A stretch of 40,129 bases of DNA from Bacteroidota bacterium (lineage in GTDB: Bacteria; Bacteroidota; Bacteroidia; Chitinophagales; Chitinophagaceae): positions 1 through 40,129 of the forward strand of contig JABDFN010000007.1 in NCBI GenBank assembly GCA_013286485.1. Direction: 5' to 3'. Shown here one piece after another: positions 32,970 to 40,129 of this stretch. A program made the position numbers and the translations under genes. The notes beneath the pieces were generated by a model, which saw only the letters and a list, made by a program, of their open reading frames with translations, was not told where the DNA came from and ran no database searches. Every line of letters starts with the position of its first letter. Position 1 is the stretch's first letter.

Positions 32970-33170
32970 CTAGACAATCCGACTCAAAATAATATCCAAC
33001 ATTTCCGCGGGTCTGTCTCTATGGGTATATCTGAATGAGTTTTCAGCAATATATTTTGGTAAGTGCTTTTCGCTAACGTGAATGTGTGTTCCTTTAATCA
33101 TACGTTTTAACGTACTCCAATAATTTTCCAGTGCATTAGTTGAAAAATCCCCCCTCGTCCTCGTTTGCAA
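32970..33170 (-). pseudogene. IS1595/ISXO2-type transposase C-terminal remnant
   Basis: About 66 codons whose residues 12-55 match the C-terminus of ISXO2-like DDE transposases: TNALENYWSTLKRMIKGTHI, with the catalytic-region Asn-Glu, then HVSEKHLPKYIAENSFRYTHRDR and MLDIILSR at the end. The full protein is normally around 250-330 residues, so the N-terminal zinc-ribbon and the first two catalytic acids are missing. Upstream, homology stops at about 33140-33170, exactly where a hairpin (33157-33177) begins. No terminal inverted repeats were identified. The remnant cannot encode an active transposase. It lies between the atp operon promoter and the CPBP protease gene. Confidence 0.75.
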
Positions 33171-33177
33171 CGAGGAT
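33157..33177. repeat. Small hairpin at the broken end of the transposase remnant
   Basis: Arms TCCTCGTT (33158-33165) and AACGAGGA (33169-33176) pair perfectly around the loop TGC, with an extra G-T pair outside. The short G/C-rich hairpin resembles REP-like intergenic elements; the link is not proven. Confidence 0.65.
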
Positions 33178-33201
33178 GCTATGGAAAAGCGTTTGTAAGC
33201 A

Positions 33202-33235
33202 CACTTGACAAGTCTTTATTTTGACTTGTCAAGTG
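33202..33235. repeat. 13-bp perfect inverted repeat
   Basis: CACTTGACAAGTC (33202-33214) and GACTTGTCAAGTG (33223-33235) pair without mismatch around the loop TTTATTTT. Each arm is itself nearly palindromic (ACTTGACAAGT). It lies 73 bases before the CPBP protease start and 31 bases beyond the transposase remnant. Possible roles are a terminator-like structure, a protein-binding site or a mobile-element relic. Confidence 0.75.
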
Positions 33236-33307
33236 ACCCTCAATTCACCCCTCAAATTCACCTATCCTTTTATTATAGCAGTTTGTATCTTTCATAAAAC
33301 ACCTCCG

Positions 33308-34177
33308 ATGAATAGTATCAGATCTGCCTTGTTAAGGCACAAAAGCTATATAGTTTCATATCCGTTTACTTGCCTGCTTATATTGATTGCCTGCGGCATT
33401 ATATTATATACAAGTATGCAGGATAAAACTATTGTTCATGCACTGGCATATATTGGTGCTGTATGGTTATGCGCATTCATTACTGATATAATAGTCATAG
33501 CCCGCCCGCGAACATCAACCGGTTTCCCTATACGCAAGCCATTAAAAAAAGAATTGCTCACTATCATCATCTGTGTGTTGCTGGGATCAGCATTTCTTAT
33601 CATTCGTTTTTTTACAGACTGGCAGCGCCTTCCTAATATTGTGCGCCTTGCAGCAATACCGCTTGTGCTATTTACATTCCAGGCAGTGCAGGCGATCATA
33701 TACCTGTTCGTATTCAAATACAAATTCAAAGAGCTGGGTGTTAATCTCAATTATTGGTATCTGCCTATTATACTACATATAGTTTGGGGTGGTATCACGC
33801 TTTGGCTGGCGCCTAATGAATCTCACTGGCAGGAAGCATATAAAGAATATGGTATTTTCGGTTCACTGTTCACAGGTATTATTTCTGCTGCGCTGCCTGA
33901 AGAATTTATGCGACTATTATTTCAAACAAGAATTGGTAAGGCTCTAACCAGCCCTGCTATGGGTCTTTTTATTGCTACTGCTATTTGGGGTGCTATGCAC
34001 ATACCAATCGGTCATAGCCAAAATCATGAGCGGGTTACATTATGGCATGCCACTGTAGGTATAGCATACCTCACGCCAATAGGAATGTTCTGGGGCTATC
34101 TTACGCAACGAACCAAAAGCTTATTCCCGGCAGTAATGATGCATGGATTGAATTTGTGGGGACTACAGAATTTTTAA
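33308..34177 (+). CDS. CPBP-family intramembrane metalloprotease
   Basis: A 289-residue polytopic membrane protein. The conserved CPBP (CAAX protease and bacteriocin-processing) motifs are EE at 198-199 with R202 (LPEEFMRLLF), H231 in GAMHIPIG, and H279 in MMHGLNLW, which together form the buried metal-dependent active site. About eight hydrophobic segments are seen. Bacterial members process or protect against peptides, including bacteriocins; the substrate here is unknown. I chose ATG at 33308; a longer frame from 33221 would start at TTG inside the perfect inverted repeat and adds no conserved sequence. It stands alone, convergent with the minus-strand secreted-protein genes. Confidence 0.88.
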   Translation: MNSIRSALLRHKSYIVSYPFTCLLILIACGIILYTSMQDKTIVHALAYIGAVWLCAFITDIIVIARPRTSTGFPIRKPLKKELLTIIICVLLGSAFLIIRFFTDWQRLPNIVRLAAIPLVLFTFQAVQAIIYLFVFKYKFKELGVNLNYWYLPIILHIVWGGITLWLAPNESHWQEAYKEYGIFGSLFTGIISAALPEEFMRLLFQTRIGKALTSPAMGLFIATAIWGAMHIPIGHSQNHERVTLWHATVGIAYLTPIGMFWGYLTQRTKSLFPAVMMHGLNLWGLQNF

Positions 34178-34198
34178 GAAGCAAGCTGTTTCTACTTC

Positions 34199-34233
34199 AA
34201 AAAAAACCGGCACCCGCTATTGCAAGTGCCGGT
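34199..34233 (-). terminator. Rho-independent terminator of the small secreted-protein genes
   Basis: Arms ACCGGCAC (34206-34213) and GTGCCGGT (34226-34233) form an eight-pair G/C-rich stem. On the minus strand it is followed by eight T residues (complement of the A run ending at 34206), and it begins 20 bases after the stop at 34253. Confidence 0.85.
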
Positions 34234-34252
34234 GAGTAACAGGGAGGAGCTG

Positions 34253-34687
34253 TTAATTAAAATCGAGAGTAGCAGAGCCGCCGCCGGTATTGGTCCAAGT
34301 AGCGGTGATAGTAGTACCAGGACATGGTGGAATAGCCGAAACCCATGAATAGGTAAAGGAAATAACACATGGTCCAGAAGGTGCAGGACATAGCCAAGTG
34401 CAATAGTTACCTACTCCATAATAATAGCATGTGGAGCAAGCATCACCAACAGTTGCGAAGTCCCAAGCCCCTGAAGGAATAGAAAGGGTGGGATAGACTG
34501 TACCACCACCGGCAATTGTCATTAAGCCATAGTTTGCGTCAGGCAAAGTACATAGTCCACCTGCTGAGTAATTAGCTATGAAATTAATAGACTCGCACGT
34601 ATTGTTTGTTACTGTAAGAGTTATTTGTGCTTTAACACTTGAAACAGCAAATAAAGCGAGCAATAAAATAAAACTGATTTTTTTCAT
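34253..34687 (-). CDS. Small exported cysteine-rich protein (family member A)
   Basis: A 144-residue protein with a clear signal peptide (about 1-20, ending VKAQ). The mature part opens LTVTNNTCESINF, has a central glycine patch (IAGGGTVYPTLSIPSG), several cysteines (CSTCYY, GNYCTWLC, GPCV) and ends in a beta-rich GGGSATLDF. The opening TVxNN..C, the GGG turn and the G[DN]xC element recur in three neighbouring genes, so these form one family by sequence. There is no T9SS sorting domain. I recognise no known family; the protein is probably periplasmic or secreted, with disulfides. It is the last gene before a strong terminator; the gap to the preceding gene is 61 bases. Confidence 0.75.
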   Translation of the reverse strand: MKKISFILLLALFAVSSVKAQITLTVTNNTCESINFIANYSAGGLCTLPDANYGLMTIAGGGTVYPTLSIPSGAWDFATVGDACSTCYYYGVGNYCTWLCPAPSGPCVISFTYSWVSAIPPCPGTTITATWTNTGGGSATLDFN

Positions 34688-34748
34688 AGAATTGATTTTA
34701 TTGTGGTTAATAATAGATGTTTAAAATGATAAGGTTTGCAGGGAAATA

Positions 34749-35186
34749 TTAGTTGATATCAACTGTTACAGCGCCTCCGGGAGCTCTTGTCCAGGTAACA
34801 TTAATAGTAGCGCCTGCGCAACCGCCACAACATTGTGTATAGCTATTAGTTGTAAAAGCCCCGCAATAATCGCCTACTGTAGTATAGCAACGACCTCCTA
34901 ACGGTAGTACACATGTATCAAGCACCTGTACATTCTCCCATGTAGAACCGGGAGGGGGCGCAGAGCCTGCCCAGATAAAGGGGTTTGCTATATCAAGCAC
35001 AATTGAGCCACCGCCAGCAATATAATTTGGCGTAGTAACATAATAAAGCCCAGTGCAGACAGGAGAAGCTTCGGCTGTACCTATAATGTGAAAGGCACAA
35101 GTGAGGTGGTTATTAACTGTAACCGTTTGAGCTTTTACAATTGCAAAGGCAAATAGTGCAGCAGTAATAAGAATGATCTTTTTCAT
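34749..35186 (-). CDS. Small exported cysteine-rich protein (family member B)
   Basis: A 145-residue protein with signal peptide (about 1-19, ending VKAQ). The mature part begins TVTVNNHLTCAFHII and contains IAGGGSIVLDI, APPPGSTWENVQVLDTC, VGDYCGAF and a cysteine cluster QCCGGC, then ends in ATINVTWTRAPGG. It shares the NN..C opening, GGG turn, PP..W segment, VLD and G-D-x-C motif with the two 138-residue paralogs at 35255 and 37494, and the C-terminal TxTxTWT strand with member A. The eight or so cysteines suggest disulfides. The function is unknown. It sits 68 bases after the preceding member. Confidence 0.75.
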   Translation of the reverse strand: MKKIILITAALFAFAIVKAQTVTVNNHLTCAFHIIGTAEASPVCTGLYYVTTPNYIAGGGSIVLDIANPFIWAGSAPPPGSTWENVQVLDTCVLPLGGRCYTTVGDYCGAFTTNSYTQCCGGCAGATINVTWTRAPGGAVTVDIN

Positions 35187-35254
35187 AGATTGATTTTTTA
35201 TTGTTAATAGAATGATTAGCTATTATTCGACTGTTACAAATTTGGTAGCACCAG

Positions 35255-35671
35255 TTAACCTCCGCTTGGCCATATGATTATTATATTATCCAGGGCATCG
35301 TCTACAGAATAGCTGGCAGTTTCTGATGAGCCGCAACCGGAAGTAAGGTTCACACTCGATGGAAATCCGGCACATACGTCACCTGTAAATCTCATTTGAC
35401 CGTCGTCTAATACTGTAATGCCCGACCATACTGCATTTATAGGTGGTGCGGCACCCGACCATGAAAGGTCGTTCACGCTATTGTAGGTTGCTATACCACC
35501 GGCAGCAAGCGTTATTGTTTGCGAAGTAAATGCAGCATCGCAGGTATTAGGGTTGGATACAACAACAGAAAAAGAAAAGCTGCAACTGGTATTGTTGTTG
35601 ACCGTGAATGTTTGTGCCCGCGCAATACTGCATGCGCTTAGCAGGGCAAGAATGAAAAAGAGTCGTTTCAT
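35255..35671 (-). CDS. Small exported protein (family member C1)
   Basis: A 138-residue exported protein, signal peptide about 1-19 (ending ARAQ). The mature sequence TFTVNNNTSCSFSFSV, NPNTCDAAFTS, ITLAAGG, LSWSGAAPPINAVW, TVLDDGQMRFTGDVCAGF and SGCGSSETASY is about three-quarters identical by eye to the protein at 37494, and shares its four cysteines. Stretches of DNA are identical too (for example 35299-35335 with 37538-37574). No catalytic residues or sorting domain are apparent. It is separated from its twin by a T9SS gene in the same orientation, which is consistent with a local duplication. Confidence 0.78.
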   Translation of the reverse strand: MKRLFFILALLSACSIARAQTFTVNNNTSCSFSFSVVVSNPNTCDAAFTSQTITLAAGGIATYNSVNDLSWSGAAPPINAVWSGITVLDDGQMRFTGDVCAGFPSSVNLTSGCGSSETASYSVDDALDNIIIIWPSGG

Positions 35672-35732
35672 AAAATTTAATTTAGATTAAAGACTATTAT
35701 TGTTTTATCTTAAAATAATTATGTTCAAAAGA

Positions 35733-37442
35733 TCAGTTTTTTGTAAACTTTCCTCCAAATACAGATCCATCAGCGCTTTCGAGATTCACCTGGTAAACTC
35801 CATTTGCTAATTGGGATATATCCACCTGTTCAACATTAAGGCCGTCGCTCACTTGTATACGCTGCACCAACCTTCCCATGTTATCATATATTTTTAAAAT
35901 GCCGCCCTTAAGTTTCTCATTAATCAAACTAACATTGATCTCGTTATCTGCAGGATTGGGAGCGATAGTAAGTGCAGAAGTTATATTCGGGTTTGCTGCT
36001 ATTATATGAGGGGCAGGTTTGCTTGAGGGAGGATTTTTTCCGCAGTCTGTATTTTCGTTACGCGGCAGGTCGTAAGCGTATACAATATCATTTACTTGTG
36101 TTAAATAGGCATCGTCAGGTGCTATGTATACAGTTGCGAAACCAGGAACATTAGCATTGCTGGGAGTGTCATTGCCAGGGCAATCGTATCCCCAGTCATC
36201 CTTTATGACAAAGGTGTTTGTATAAGTGCCATAGCAACCCGAAAATGTTGGGAAAGAGCTTGCTGTATTATAAGTAATAGAGAGTCCGGATTCTGCATCC
36301 GGAGCAGGGAAATTTGTATAACGAGTTAAAACTCCTGAATAATTTGTTTCGGCATATATTGCGCCGTTACCCATATCTAAGCCGCTAACACAAAGTTTAT
36401 TCCTGCCTTGGTCAACAGTTATTCCCATGCCTTGTGATATAGTACCGCTGTTCAGATAGTATTTTAAAAACGGGAAAGCAAGTGTATAAGGATTTATTTT
36501 CCCTATCATTATTTGCTCGTTTGTGAACCCTGTATATAATGTGCATGGCTTGCCTGATATACCGGTTATGCCTAAATCACCATCACCTACGTCTACCAGG
36601 CTATTGCCAAATAAAGTGGCGTTTGATGCATACACATTAAGTTGCACATCCTGGTAGTAAGAGCCTGCATCATCAAATACATATAACATCATGTTTGACC
36701 ACATACCGTCTGTAGCATTGCCAATAACAGCGTATCTTCCCTGGTAAGGAACAACTTGCTGAAAGTAAGCGCCAATGCCAATAAATGGACGATATGGTGA
36801 TATGCCGACTACTTGTTTAGCCCATATCAGGTTGCCATTTCCGTCTACAGAAAATATAAGAGCCATGTTTGGTGCACTCCATGGGCCTCCATCCAGGTAA
36901 CCGCATGTAATAAAATTACCCGTAGAAGTTTCAGCTATGCTGTATAGCATTCCTTTATTGTCAAACCTTCTATACCAGCTTACATTACCGCTGCCATCTG
37001 TTTTAAGCAGAAACATATCGTCGTAAACAATAGAAGGGTTACAATTGTTATTGCTTGTTTCACCATCGCGTCTCACGCCGCCGCAAATAATATAACCGCC
37101 ATCTGATGTATGCAGTGCATATTGGCATGTGAAGTAATCTGCAAGATTAGTGCAGTTTATTTCATCAATGTCAACATAGGTTTTTAGCCATTGAGAATTA
37201 AGAAAGTGGTCTATCTTCTCCAGTTGAATTCTTTGTAATATAAAACCACCTGCGGCCTGGTTGTTCAGACCTCCTATAAATGCTGGAAGCGTATTACCGG
37301 ATAAGATGTAAGCATTAGATGAGGGAACATAGTCGATGCCTTTATTTATAACATCGGGGAAATGCCTGTCCATGTTCTGGGCATTGCAGGTAAAAGCACA
37401 TATCAGAACTGCAGAAATGATCGAAAGGAGTATTTTTTTCAT
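35733..37442 (-). CDS. Secreted protein with T9SS type A sorting domain
   Basis: A 569-residue exported protein. It has a signal peptide (about 1-21, ending TCNAQ) and a large domain with repeated blade-like units (TSDGGYIICGG, DMFLLKTDGSGNVSWYRRF, TGNFITCGY, MALIFSVDGNGNLIWAKQV), suggesting a beta-propeller. The C-terminal T9SS type A domain (about 490-569) includes IAPNPADNEINV, KIYDNMGRLVQRI, LANGVYQVNLE and ends GGKFTKN. It is exported by the type IX system to the surface or medium. The substrate or partner is unknown. It is flanked by two nearly identical small secreted-protein genes, and may have been inserted or kept between them. Confidence 0.88.
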   Translation of the reverse strand: MKKILLSIISAVLICAFTCNAQNMDRHFPDVINKGIDYVPSSNAYILSGNTLPAFIGGLNNQAAGGFILQRIQLEKIDHFLNSQWLKTYVDIDEINCTNLADYFTCQYALHTSDGGYIICGGVRRDGETSNNNCNPSIVYDDMFLLKTDGSGNVSWYRRFDNKGMLYSIAETSTGNFITCGYLDGGPWSAPNMALIFSVDGNGNLIWAKQVVGISPYRPFIGIGAYFQQVVPYQGRYAVIGNATDGMWSNMMLYVFDDAGSYYQDVQLNVYASNATLFGNSLVDVGDGDLGITGISGKPCTLYTGFTNEQIMIGKINPYTLAFPFLKYYLNSGTISQGMGITVDQGRNKLCVSGLDMGNGAIYAETNYSGVLTRYTNFPAPDAESGLSITYNTASSFPTFSGCYGTYTNTFVIKDDWGYDCPGNDTPSNANVPGFATVYIAPDDAYLTQVNDIVYAYDLPRNENTDCGKNPPSSKPAPHIIAANPNITSALTIAPNPADNEINVSLINEKLKGGILKIYDNMGRLVQRIQVSDGLNVEQVDISQLANGVYQVNLESADGSVFGGKFTKN

Positions 37443-37493
37443 GAATTTTGTTTTTGATGGTTAAGAAAAAAGTAACTGAAATGAAAAATAATC

Positions 37494-37910
37494 TTAGCTA
37501 CCTGATGGCCAGACTATGACAATGTCATTTGAGTGGTCGTCTACAGAATAGCTGGCAGTTTCTGATGAGCCGCAGTTGGAGGTAAGATTTGCACTGGCTG
37601 TAAATCCGGCACATGCATCGCCGGTAAATCTCAATTGGCCATCATCAAGAACGGAAATGCCGGACCAAACTGCATTTATCGGTGGTGTGGCACCCGACCA
37701 TGATAGGTCATTCACAGTAGTGTAAGTGGCTATATCGCCTGCAGCTAAAGTCACAGTGTGTGATGTGTATGCGGCATCACAAGTATTTGGATTTGATGCG
37801 ATTACAGAGAATGAAAAGTTACAGCCGGTAGTGTTGTTAACTGTAAATGTTTGTGCCTGTGTTGATGTAAATACCCCGATTAGGGCAGCAATAAGAAAGA
37901 TCTTTTTCAT
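37494..37910 (-). CDS. Small exported protein (family member C2)
   Basis: A 138-residue exported protein, signal peptide about 1-19 (ending STQAQ). The mature part TFTVNNTTGCNFSFSV, NPNTCDAAYTS, VTLAAGD, LSWSGATPPINAVW, SVLDDGQLRFTGDACAGF and NCGSSETASY is a close paralog of the protein at 35255. Substitutions are mostly conservative, so both copies look functional. It is the first of the five minus-strand secreted-protein genes after the two-component system. A TAGCTTTG box (complement at 37946-37953) upstream resembles a -7 element, but no -33 partner was found. Confidence 0.78.
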   Translation of the reverse strand: MKKIFLIAALIGVFTSTQAQTFTVNNTTGCNFSFSVIASNPNTCDAAYTSHTVTLAAGDIATYTTVNDLSWSGATPPINAVWSGISVLDDGQLRFTGDACAGFTASANLTSNCGSSETASYSVDDHSNDIVIVWPSGS

Positions 37911-38085
37911 AAAATTGTTTTTTTTGAAATAGTTGATTGTAAAGTCAAAGCTATACTGCTATGCCATTGCTTTTTTGTAGAATGCGTTTGTAACTGAAAA
38001 TTTCAGGTAAGCGTAGTGGATAAATGGGTGAGCGTAAAAAGCATGCCCCCCGGTGAGAGTACAACTGTAATGCTATTCCGTTTTC

Positions 38086-38823
38086 TTAGTGTTTTAGTCT
38101 ATGAAAGAATTCTTCTTTCTTTCTGAAAGAGATGGGTAATTCATCATTATTGCACATAATTACTGAAGAGTCTAGCTTAGCTACTTTTTCTATGCAATCC
38201 ATATTAATAAGGTAGGATTTGTGAATGCGGAAAAAATTATTTGATTGTAATAAGTCTTCATATTCTTTTAAAAGCCTCGATACAAGATAATGCTTACCAT
38301 TTTGCAAATAAAAATGTGTATAATTATCTTCAGCTTTGCAGTAGATAATGTCTTTGATCCTTACAGGATAATAGCCTTCCATCGTAGATAATACAATTCT
38401 ATTAAAAGGAGCGTTGGGTTGTAAAGAATCTTTAAGAAAATGATAATGATCTATTGGAGGAGTTACTTGTTGTTTTATTTTTTGCACACATGCTTGCAGC
38501 TCTGCTATCTTTACAGGTTTCAATAAATAATCCAGTGCGGAAAATTTGATAGCTTTTAGTGCATATTCTTCATATGCTGTTACAAAAACGATCTTAAAAT
38601 TAATATCGTTCAGTTCTTCCAACAGATTAAACCCGTCGCCGCCCGGCATTTCTATATCCAGGAACACTGCATCAGGTTGTTTTTGTCGTATCATACTGGC
38701 GGCATCCATAATATTTGTGGCAGTGCCTTCTACTACAACATCGGTGCAATATTTTTTTAGTAGCTGCTGCATTGCCACTATACCTCTTTCTTCGTCATCG
38801 ACGATAATAACTCTCGTATCCAT
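38086..38823 (-). CDS. LytTR-family response regulator
   Basis: A 245-residue DNA-binding regulator. The receiver domain (about 1-120) has the acidic pocket D9-D10-E11, phospho-acceptor D56 in FLDIEMPGG, T82 and K102 (LLKPV). The LytTR DNA-binding domain covers about 145-245 (VRIKDIIYCKAEDNYTHFYL, LVSRLLKEYEDLL, FFRIHKSYLINMDCIEKV). Phosphorylation by the adjacent kinase should increase binding to LytTR sites, which are usually pairs of short direct repeats. It follows the kinase gene with one base between stop and start, so the two are co-expressed. It is likely to control genes for secreted or surface products, perhaps those just downstream; this is inference from position. Confidence 0.93.
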   Translation of the reverse strand: MDTRVIIVDDEERGIVAMQQLLKKYCTDVVVEGTATNIMDAASMIRQKQPDAVFLDIEMPGGDGFNLLEELNDINFKIVFVTAYEEYALKAIKFSALDYLLKPVKIAELQACVQKIKQQVTPPIDHYHFLKDSLQPNAPFNRIVLSTMEGYYPVRIKDIIYCKAEDNYTHFYLQNGKHYLVSRLLKEYEDLLQSNNFFRIHKSYLINMDCIEKVAKLDSSVIMCNNDELPISFRKKEEFFHRLKH

Positions 38824-38824
38824 A

Positions 38825-40129
38825 TTAGGTAAGTATTGGGATTAATATCTGAATAATAGTTCCGTTGTCAATAGGGTTTATTTGTTTTTTATCAATAATG
38901 GTTATGCTCCCTGCTTCGCCTTTTTCTGTGGTTATTAATTTTAAACGTTCCTCAAGCACCTTCAAAGCAGTAGATTCTTTTTTTTGGGTACCGTATTTCT
39001 TATCAGTATTTGAAAAGATACCTACACCATTGTCTTCTATTGTTGCTTTCAGAAGATCGCGCTGCCTTTCCATTGTAAAGGATACCTTCCCATCTTTTAC
39101 ATTAGATATGCCATGTTTGATCGCATTTTCCAACAAAGGTTGAAAAAGAGCAGGGACGATTTTTATTTCATCATCTAATAGCAACTTGTCAACATTTATT
39201 ATATATTCAAACTTGTTATTGAATCTTGTTTTTTCAAGCTGTAAATAATTTTTCAGAAAATCTATTTCCTCGTTAAGCGTTATATATGGCTTTCTGGAAT
39301 TCTCCAGCATTTTCCGCATAAGCATTGCAAAGTCATTAAGATAATTAAGGCCCTGCTCCTGTTTTTCGATCAGCATAAATTGCTGGATCGTATTGAGGGA
39401 GTTAAAAATAAAATGAGGGTTCATCTGGTATGCAAGGGATTTACTTTCTAATTCTGTTATCTTCTGGTAAAGAATGTTTCGCTGGTCTGCGCGTTTATGA
39501 ATTACCTTGATGCGGATATGCAACATATAATAGACTGTAAATACTAATATAATGGTCAACAATATATAAAACCATATAGCCTGGTACCAGTGCGGATTTA
39601 CAATTATTGTTAATAACGCGGGTTTGCTCCACGAACTATTGTATTTTTTTGCCCGGAACAGAAGGTTATGAATACCCGGTGAAAGATCTGATAATGATAT
39701 GTCTGTAGCTTTTGTATCATGCCAATCCGCATTATTTTCAAACCGATATTGGTACTGAACATCTGCAGGAGACTGATAAGTAATTGCTGTAAAATAGATG
39801 TTGATAAATCCTTTGAAGTAGTTAAAAATAACTGTGTCTCCAGGGTCAGTAATAGATTTGTTTTCCTTCCGAAAGTTTGTAATATATACTTTAGGAGGTG
39901 CTGAACTGCCCATTACATCATTCAATTTGAAAATGTCTGTTCCGTCTGCAGTGGCGGCATAAACATATGCGTCATCGGTAGTGATATTTTTTATGTCATC
40001 AGAAGTAAGGCCGATGTTAGATGTTACGTTATAGTATAGGTCTCCAGTGTTTCTGTTTAAAACAGAAATGCCGTGATTGGTAGCCAGCCATATGTAGTTT
40101 TTTTTGTCGTCATACAGTTTTTGACAAAC
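38825..40129 (-). CDS. Beta-propeller sensor histidine kinase (LytS type), 5' end outside window
   Basis: The frame is open to the window edge (434 codons seen), so the N-terminus is missing. The visible order is: the end of a two-component-regulator propeller (blades IWLATNHGISVLN and YVYAATADGTDIF, first 68 residues), a Y_Y_Y domain (YQYRFENNADWHDT, DLSPGIHNLLFRAK), a membrane helix (WFYILLTIILVFTVYYMLHI), and a His_kinase domain with the phospho-acceptor in YQMNPHFIFNSLN. A GHKL ATPase domain with N-box LLENAIKHGISN and DNGVGIF follows. It would sense a periplasmic ligand and phosphorylate the LytTR regulator encoded one base downstream. The ligand is unknown; relatives often sense glycans. 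The internal TTG at 39925 is not a true start. Confidence 0.93.
   Translation of the reverse strand, partial: VCQKLYDDKKNYIWLATNHGISVLNRNTGDLYYNVTSNIGLTSDDIKNITTDDAYVYAATADGTDIFKLNDVMGSSAPPKVYITNFRKENKSITDPGDTVIFNYFKGFINIYFTAITYQSPADVQYQYRFENNADWHDTKATDISLSDLSPGIHNLLFRAKKYNSSWSKPALLTIIVNPHWYQAIWFYILLTIILVFTVYYMLHIRIKVIHKRADQRNILYQKITELESKSLAYQMNPHFIFNSLNTIQQFMLIEKQEQGLNYLNDFAMLMRKMLENSRKPYITLNEEIDFLKNYLQLEKTRFNNKFEYIINVDKLLLDDEIKIVPALFQPLLENAIKHGISNVKDGKVSFTMERQRDLLKATIEDNGVGIFSNTDKKYGTQKKESTALKVLEERLKLITTEKGEAGSITIIDKKQINPIDNGTIIQILIPILT

What the first reader, a model, noticed from the sequence alone, without database searches (positions are those of the whole stretch)
34253..37910. Unrecognised family of small exported cysteine proteins with a shared G[DN]xC motif
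Four adjacent genes encode 138-145-residue exported proteins that share a TVxNN..C opening, a central G-rich turn and G-D/N-x-C (GNYC, GDYC, GDVC, GDAC), yet lack sorting domains. Local expansion with diversification, next to a sensor kinase, suggests an environmental or interbacterial role.
Basis: seen in the sequence. Interest (0 to 1): 0.55.

Follow-up and report, generated by a model that had tools for sequence, protein, structure and literature searches.

The report
Secreted protein family beside T9SS cargo
Four small exported cysteine-containing proteins belong to an apparently undescribed bacterial protein family whose genes lie beside those of large surface proteins and of a gene-switching system more often than control genes do; what the proteins do is not yet known.

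Summary
Four proteins with signal-peptide-like starts (34253-37910, minus strand) are homologous: a profile from 38 members of other genomes, signal peptides removed, finds all four (E 1.9e-22 to 3.2e-7; next of 166 window ORFs 0.38). They are not four adjacent genes: a 569-aa type IX secretion (T9SS) cargo lies between the first and second. Literal G[DN]xC occurs in only 8 of 106 members; the hallmarks are four cysteines, an Asn and a Gly. No known Pfam or NCBIfam family or solved structure matches by sequence. The family is found in 41 of 294 genomes of its taxonomic family, some hits partial, with 14-gene arrays in Taibaiella helva and T. koreensis. A confident model (pLDDT 96.6) is all-beta and resembles aegerolysins and thaumatin-like proteins only loosely (Z under 8). 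Two neighbours exceed hand-picked controls: a T9SS type A protein within 300 bp (15 of 50 loci; 27 of 506 control genes) and a LytTR regulator within 2 kb (8 of 50; 7 of 506). Paralogues are old and under purifying selection. Best reading: LytTR-linked, disulfide-stapled modules acting with T9SS surface proteins. Function untested.

The parts
37494..37910 (-). Family member 1, 138 aa, signal-peptide-like start then about 119 aa; Cys 30, 44, 100, 113; TGDAC. First small gene after the LytTR regulator
   Evidence: all-beta model pLDDT 76
35733..37442 (-). 569-aa exported protein with a C-terminal T9SS type A sorting domain, 51 bp after member 1
   Evidence: Por_Secre_tail 7.6e-12, TIGR04183 5.6e-10
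35255..35671 (-). Family member 2, 138 aa, closest paralogue of member 1 (72% identity, 78% over the mature part); TGDVC
34749..35186 (-). Family member 3, 145 aa, 8 Cys, VGDYC
34253..34687 (-). Family member 4, 144 aa, 8 Cys, VGDAC and VGNYC; the most divergent of the four
38086..38823 (-). Response regulator with LytTR DNA-binding domain, 175 bp upstream of member 1, same strand
   Evidence: LytTR 6.1e-22, Response_reg 1.2e-21
38825..40129 (-). Sensor histidine kinase, N-terminus cut off by the contig end
   Evidence: His_kinase 6.2e-22
37946..37953 (-). TAGCTTTG, fits TAnnTTTG (Bacteroidota -7 element; consensus recalled), 43 bp before the start codon of member 1; the only sense match in the 3833-bp region 34253-38085
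   Evidence: a pattern match whose chance rate was not computed
34206..34233 (-). Intrinsic-terminator-like hairpin (12 pairs, 8 G-C, then 7 T) just after member 4
   Evidence: strongest of 6 terminator-like sites in 34000-38900; shuffles give 3.9 on average

Best explanation
The four genes and the T9SS cargo form one five-gene transcription unit whose first gene follows a LytTR two-component system. The small proteins are exported by Sec, fold into compact all-beta modules stapled by two to four disulfides, and work in the periplasm or, more likely, at the cell surface or outside as non-enzymatic binding modules that act together with the large T9SS-exported surface proteins made with them (partner, ligand-binding subunit or co-effector). 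Shown: homology, export-signal-like starts, absence of known domains, linkage to T9SS cargo and to LytTR regulators beyond the controls used, purifying selection. Inferred: co-transcription, disulfides (from co-occurrence of cysteines), regulation by LytTR, location beyond the periplasm, binding rather than catalysis, and physical partnership with the cargo.
For: T9SS type A neighbour within 300 bp at 15 of 50 family loci, against 27 of 506 control genes (Fisher p 4e-7) and 4 of 77 small exported-looking control genes (p 2e-4), with a sorting-domain profile trained on control loci only. At these 15 loci the cargo is directly downstream on the same strand in 8, divergent in 5, upstream on the same strand in 1 and convergent in 1 (in the window it is also directly upstream of member 2); they fall in 8 genera by the handles. 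Ten of these neighbours, chosen because my profile marked them, were scanned and all 10 carry Por_Secre_tail above Pfam's cut-off. Outside the own taxonomic family, without a control set, 5 of 15 loci have a neighbour with a Pfam sorting domain (L174, L175, L176 and, at 353 bp, L181, same strand downstream; L184 divergent), and L173 has a directly downstream DUF7948 protein cut off at the contig end. LytTR within 2 kb at 8 of 50 loci against 7 of 506 control genes (p 1e-5), upstream of the small gene in 7 of 8, in 5 genera. Window: gaps of 51-68 bp, the only TAnnTTTG before the first gene, a terminator-like hairpin after the last. Even number of cysteines after residue 18 in 90 of 106 proteins; Cys 30 co-occurs with Cys 113 (p 0.003) and Cys 44 with Cys 100 (p 1e-6). 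Confident all-beta model of a T. helva member, pLDDT 96.6.
Against: 35 of 50 loci have no T9SS type A neighbour within 300 bp, and 42 of 50 have no LytTR within 2 kb, so neither partner is obligatory. The 14-gene Taibaiella arrays have no adjacent cargo (nearest 2607 and 883 bp away). The cargo proteins vary (SBBP/DUF7948, NHL, PKD, CBM96, FG-GAP), which a one-to-one partnership does not predict. A close homologue of the window's cargo in another genome (L166:2186-3892, E 6e-82) has no family member seen beside it. T9SS proteins are common in these genomes anyway: 20 of 40 control stretches hold one, against 35 of 50 family loci. Loci from related genomes are not independent, the control stretches were chosen by hand and not at random, the cysteine tests ignore relatedness (one pair not proposed, 44 with 113, also gives p 0.04), and the window kinase shows no sensor domain in Pfam. 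No experiment.
Confidence: 0.4

Rival explanations
1. Autonomous secreted effectors: small membrane- or glycan-binding beta-rich proteins that work like aegerolysins or thaumatin-like proteins, used against other microbes and switched on by LytTR systems.
For: The best structural resemblances of both models include aegerolysins (OlyA/PlyA up to Z 7.5, rmsd 4.0, 100 residues aligned, and Z 7.0, rmsd 3.6, 95 residues), with Cry34Ab1, MoHrip2, thaumatin-like proteins and CDC membrane-binding domains lower down; tandem arrays.
Against: Z under 8 is within the range of common arrangements; Foldseek's best E is 0.02, for another protein. No Pfam aegerolysin or thaumatin match; hhalign with one Bacteroidota aegerolysin gives probability 2.2%, E 0.022 over 41 columns. 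No recurrent immunity-like gene among ORFs of 110 aa or more, and purifying rather than diversifying selection.
Confidence: 0.25
2. Periplasmic or surface ligand-binding proteins that feed the neighbouring sensor kinase.
For: The kinases beside the T. chishuiensis array (L072) and beside L180 have Reg_prop domains, L180 also Y_Y_Y; LytTR linkage.
Against: 42 of 50 loci have no LytTR within 2 kb, including both 14-gene arrays; two LytTR neighbours (L107, L109) have no receiver domain in Pfam. A sensing subunit would hardly need up to 14 paralogues (inference).
Confidence: 0.12
3. Structural or matrix proteins without specific partners (envelope coat or biofilm filler), placed near cargo genes only because exported-protein genes cluster.
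For: Small, Gly/Ser/Thr-rich sequences and high copy number.
Against: The T9SS link persists against small exported-looking control genes (15 of 50 against 4 of 77), and the cargo is mostly downstream on the same strand or divergent (13 of 15 loci).
Confidence: 0.15

Closest known systems
Aegerolysins (PF06355)
   Same: Small (about 135 aa) beta-sandwich proteins, some acting with a larger partner (PMC9505663, passages); among the best structural resemblances of both models (up to Z 7.5)
   Different: No sequence match (hhalign probability 2.2%); this family has a signal-peptide-like start and paired cysteines, whereas the words cysteine and disulfide do not occur in the main text of that review (term search)
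Thaumatin-like proteins (PF00314)
   Same: Secreted, disulfide-rich beta proteins (recalled); TLXI and Act d 2 at Z 6.2-6.4
   Different: Chains mostly larger (151-222 residues), no sequence match, low structural score
SprF/PorP-like shuttle genes beside type B T9SS cargo
   Same: A second exported protein encoded next to a T9SS cargo: 9 of 12 type B cargo genes in F. johnsoniae adjoin a SprF-like gene (PMC12618676, passage)
   Different: SprF/PorP are larger outer-membrane proteins (recalled); here the neighbour is a small Cys protein and the cargo counted is type A in the own family, type A or B outside it
DUF6759 (PF20545)
   Same: Weak matches to a few members (best E 0.0019, 0.029)
   Different: Far from general: 2 of 43 and 1 of 43 members; none of 10 members scanned singly

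Membership tests
Aegerolysin (PF06355) | Match to the Pfam profile | tested here: not met
   Not among matches at E up to 10 for the four, nor among families listed for two 43-row sets (the sets share members)
Aegerolysin (PF06355) | Profile similarity to a Bacteroidota aegerolysin | tested here: not met
   hhalign probability 2.2%, E 0.022, 41 columns, against a single sequence
Aegerolysin (PF06355) | Aegerolysin beta-sandwich fold | tested here: inconclusive
   Z up to 7.5, within 1 of unrelated folds such as the Vps13 adaptor-binding domain and NttC
Aegerolysin (PF06355) | Sphingolipid or membrane binding | not testable with these tools
   needs protein
Thaumatin (PF00314) | Match to the Pfam profile | tested here: not met
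   No match. (0 of 148 genomes) is uninformative, as nothing rang in its controls
Thaumatin (PF00314) | Thaumatin-like fold | tested here: inconclusive
   Z 4.4-6.4
T9SS cargo | C-terminal sorting domain (Por_Secre_tail or CHU_C) | tested here: not met
   None in the four small proteins; present in the 569-aa neighbour
SprF/PorP-like shuttle | Pfam or NCBIfam match to that family | tested here: not met
   No such match listed
Bacteriocin or polymorphic toxin with immunity | Recurrent adjacent immunity gene | tested here: inconclusive
   Among the clusters of 1418 ORFs found at four or more family loci none looks like an immunity partner, but ORFs under 110 aa and rarer clusters were not examined

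The most novel reading that the evidence does not exclude
An undescribed class of cargo-linked partner proteins: small Sec-exported, disulfide-stapled beta-rich proteins that assemble with, stabilise or arm large T9SS-exported propeller-type proteins on the cell surface, made as sets under LytTR control, with arrays giving one bacterium a repertoire of interchangeable surface modules.
Probability: 0.3. Interest if true: 0.75.

Novelty: new variant of a known kind. Interest (0 to 1): 0.5.

Why it matters
It would give a profile and a structural hypothesis to an unannotated secreted family that reaches high copy number in some environmental Bacteroidota, and a testable link between LytTR signalling and T9SS surface proteins. 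If the partner reading holds, T9SS surface displays have small interchangeable subunits that carry no T9SS signal themselves, which raises the question how they cross the outer membrane.

Tried and rejected
Rejected: membership of aegerolysins, thaumatins or DUF6759 (profiles not met). Rejected: recent diversifying selection (dN/dS 0.07-0.27 in the 14 best T. helva / T. koreensis pairs, 11 of them reciprocal; dS 0.74-1.54, so rough). Rejected: fusion of the domain to large proteins; the long-frame hits L088, L089 and L091 match the profile that includes signal peptides but not the one without; other long-frame hits were not examined. Led nowhere: genome-contig scan with A1 (26 stretches, no relative confirmed); PDB sequence searches (best E 1.1); viral structure library (best E 0.025); Rfam (no match over 33000-40129); aegerolysin in 1 of 148 and thaumatin in 0 of 148 phylum genomes. 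Paper searches: no title or abstract beginning among the rows shown described such a family; only the best rows of long lists were shown, three papers were opened and only for passages, and subscription journals are largely missing, so this does not show that the family is unpublished.

Limits of the counts: the 50 loci are the window, nine earlier loci (L028-L031, L034, L071-L074) and the 40 stretches; weaker or redundant hits and the short contigs L032 and L033 were left out. The 40 control stretches were picked by hand from the same genomes, on the same or other contigs; one (L163) is the window's own first half. In one search at most 13 candidates per genome were scored, so copy numbers there are lower bounds, and some of the 41 genomes have only partial N-terminal hits that may rest on the signal peptide. 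The first LytTR and sorting-domain profiles used seeds from family loci. The sorting-domain count was repeated with seeds from control loci only, the LytTR count with seeds from control loci and other contigs of the window's genome. The first sorting-domain profiles, which included type B, gave 16 of 50 against 30 of 416. One search counted 10 of 50 loci with LytTR anywhere in the stretch against 2 of 40 control stretches. In one search the cluster of all response regulators is in 10 family and 5 control loci, a weaker contrast. The 15 loci of other taxonomic families come from 9 genomes, have no control set and were fetched after the pattern had been noticed.
Full report
What is there. The window is a whole contig (G000:C7) of a 60% complete genome. 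On the minus strand, in transcription order, lie a histidine kinase cut off at the contig end (38825-40129), a LytTR response regulator (38086-38823), small protein 1 (37494-37910), a 569-aa protein with a T9SS type A sorting domain (35733-37442), and small proteins 2, 3 and 4 (35255-35671, 34749-35186, 34253-34687). Gaps inside the set are 51 to 68 bp. The only sense match to TAnnTTTG (Bacteroidota -7 element, consensus recalled; chance rate not computed) in the 3833-bp region lies 43 bp before the first small gene, and the strongest of six terminator-like hairpins follows the last (shuffles give 3.9 such sites). One transcription unit is therefore likely but not shown.

Is the family real. 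The four-sequence alignment has 54% mean column identity, signal peptides included. A profile built from 38 members of other genomes, without signal peptides, finds all four among 166 window ORFs at E 1.9e-22, 1.2e-20, 2e-12 and 3.2e-7, the next ORF being 0.38; since those members were recruited by searches begun from the window proteins, these values are optimistic. Weaker tests are less kind to the fourth: E 1 from the other three window proteins and 0.057 from a Taibaiella-only profile. Two more members lie on contig C29 of the same genome.

Where it occurs. With a 22-row profile, 41 of 294 genomes of the same taxonomic family (the own genome included; some hits partial) and 2 of 296 of a phylum sample match at E 0.001, the latter two being the own genome and one of its family. 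With a 43-row profile, 18 of 298 order genomes (6 of them of the own family) and 16 of 295 class genomes (2 of the own family) match at E 1e-4, several weakly, in part or in long frames. The only named holders are Taibaiella helva (14-gene array, L070), T. koreensis (14, L071) and T. chishuiensis (five in L072, more in L073 and L074).

Known families. The four have no Pfam or NCBIfam match above cut-off; matches listed at E up to 10 are few, best E 0.039, and far below the cut-offs. Two 43-row sets that share members, and ten Taibaiella members singly, give only scattered matches (best E 0.0019, DUF6759, in 2 of 43). PDB sequence searches give nothing under E 1.

Structure. The T. helva member L070:10058-10441 gives a very confident all-beta model (pLDDT 96.6, pTM 0.89); window member 1 gives a weaker all-beta model (76, 0.70). 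The best solved structures by VIA-align are OlyA/PlyA aegerolysins (Z 7.5 and 7.1; rmsd 4.0 and 3.5; 100 and 94 residues) for the first, and a Vps13 adaptor-binding domain (7.9) then ostreolysin A (7.0) for the second; NttC, Cry34Ab1, thaumatin-like proteins, MoHrip2, VHL and CDC domains lie lower in one list or both. This is a loose resemblance and shows no function. Cysteines after residue 18 are even in number in 90 of 106 proteins, and co-occurrence fits pairs 30-113 (p 0.003) and 44-100 (p 1e-6), plus a third pair in some members (p 4e-12); the pair 44-113, not proposed, also gives p 0.04. Relatedness was not corrected for.

Neighbours. I compared 50 family loci with 40 hand-picked stretches of the same genomes. 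A T9SS type A protein lies within 300 bp of a family gene at 15 of 50 loci, against 27 of 506 control genes and 4 of 77 small exported-looking control genes, with a sorting-domain profile trained on control loci only; for the 33 single-gene loci it is 12. The cargo is downstream on the same strand at 8 loci, divergent at 5, upstream on the same strand at 1 and convergent at 1. Ten of these neighbours were scanned and all have Por_Secre_tail, several also SBBP, DUF7948, NHL, PKD or CBM96. Among 15 loci from other taxonomic families, examined without controls, 5 have a neighbouring protein with a Pfam sorting domain (one of them at 353 bp) and one an adjacent DUF7948 protein cut off by the contig end; two more (L178, L186) have large downstream frames without a Pfam match. 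LytTR regulators lie within 2 kb at 8 of 50 loci against 7 of 506 control genes, upstream in 7 of 8; 5 of the 17 multi-gene loci are among them. These 8 loci come from 5 genera and the 15 cargo loci from 8 genera, by the handles. One of the 15 outside loci (L180) has a LytTR regulator 3 kb away with a Reg_prop/Y_Y_Y kinase between. No immunity-like gene was seen to recur among ORFs of 110 aa or more.

Evolution. The 37494/35255 pair is a local duplicate (support 1.0) but not a fresh one (dS 1.48); the other two are deep, weakly placed branches within a clade of seven that holds all four (support 0.75). Best pairs between the T. helva and T. koreensis arrays have dN/dS 0.07 to 0.27, with 11 of 14 reciprocal. 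The copies are kept under purifying selection rather than being diversified now.

Interpretation. The reading best supported is a LytTR-linked exported set in which small disulfide-stapled beta-rich modules act with a T9SS surface protein. Linkage is statistical and far from universal, the largest arrays have no adjacent cargo, and a homologue of the window's cargo elsewhere has no small neighbour. A precedent for a gene pair beside T9SS cargo is SprF-like shuttles, next to 9 of 12 type B cargo genes in F. johnsoniae (passage of PMC12618676); a PorP-like anchoring role is discussed in PMC9143113 (passage).

Noticed in passing
L029:8288-15159 / L070:7094-13965 and L071:8035-14964: Fourteen consecutive small-protein genes in Taibaiella helva and in T. 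koreensis; 11 of 14 best pairs are reciprocal and largely in the same order.
   Followed up: partly
L034:7785-8227 (G011:C57): A family gene that appears broken into two overlapping frames; left as it is.
   Followed up: no
L173, L174, L181, L099, L127: DUF7948 recurs among the large neighbours, with SBBP repeats or sorting domains in most of them; no paper in the library holds the term DUF7948.
   Followed up: partly
window 32970-33170: A 66-aa minus-strand ORF (TTG start) that looks like a remnant of an IS1595-like transposase (recalled resemblance, not searched).
   Followed up: no
L166:2186-3892: Close homologue of the window's 569-aa T9SS cargo in another genome without an adjacent small family gene.
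   Followed up: yes
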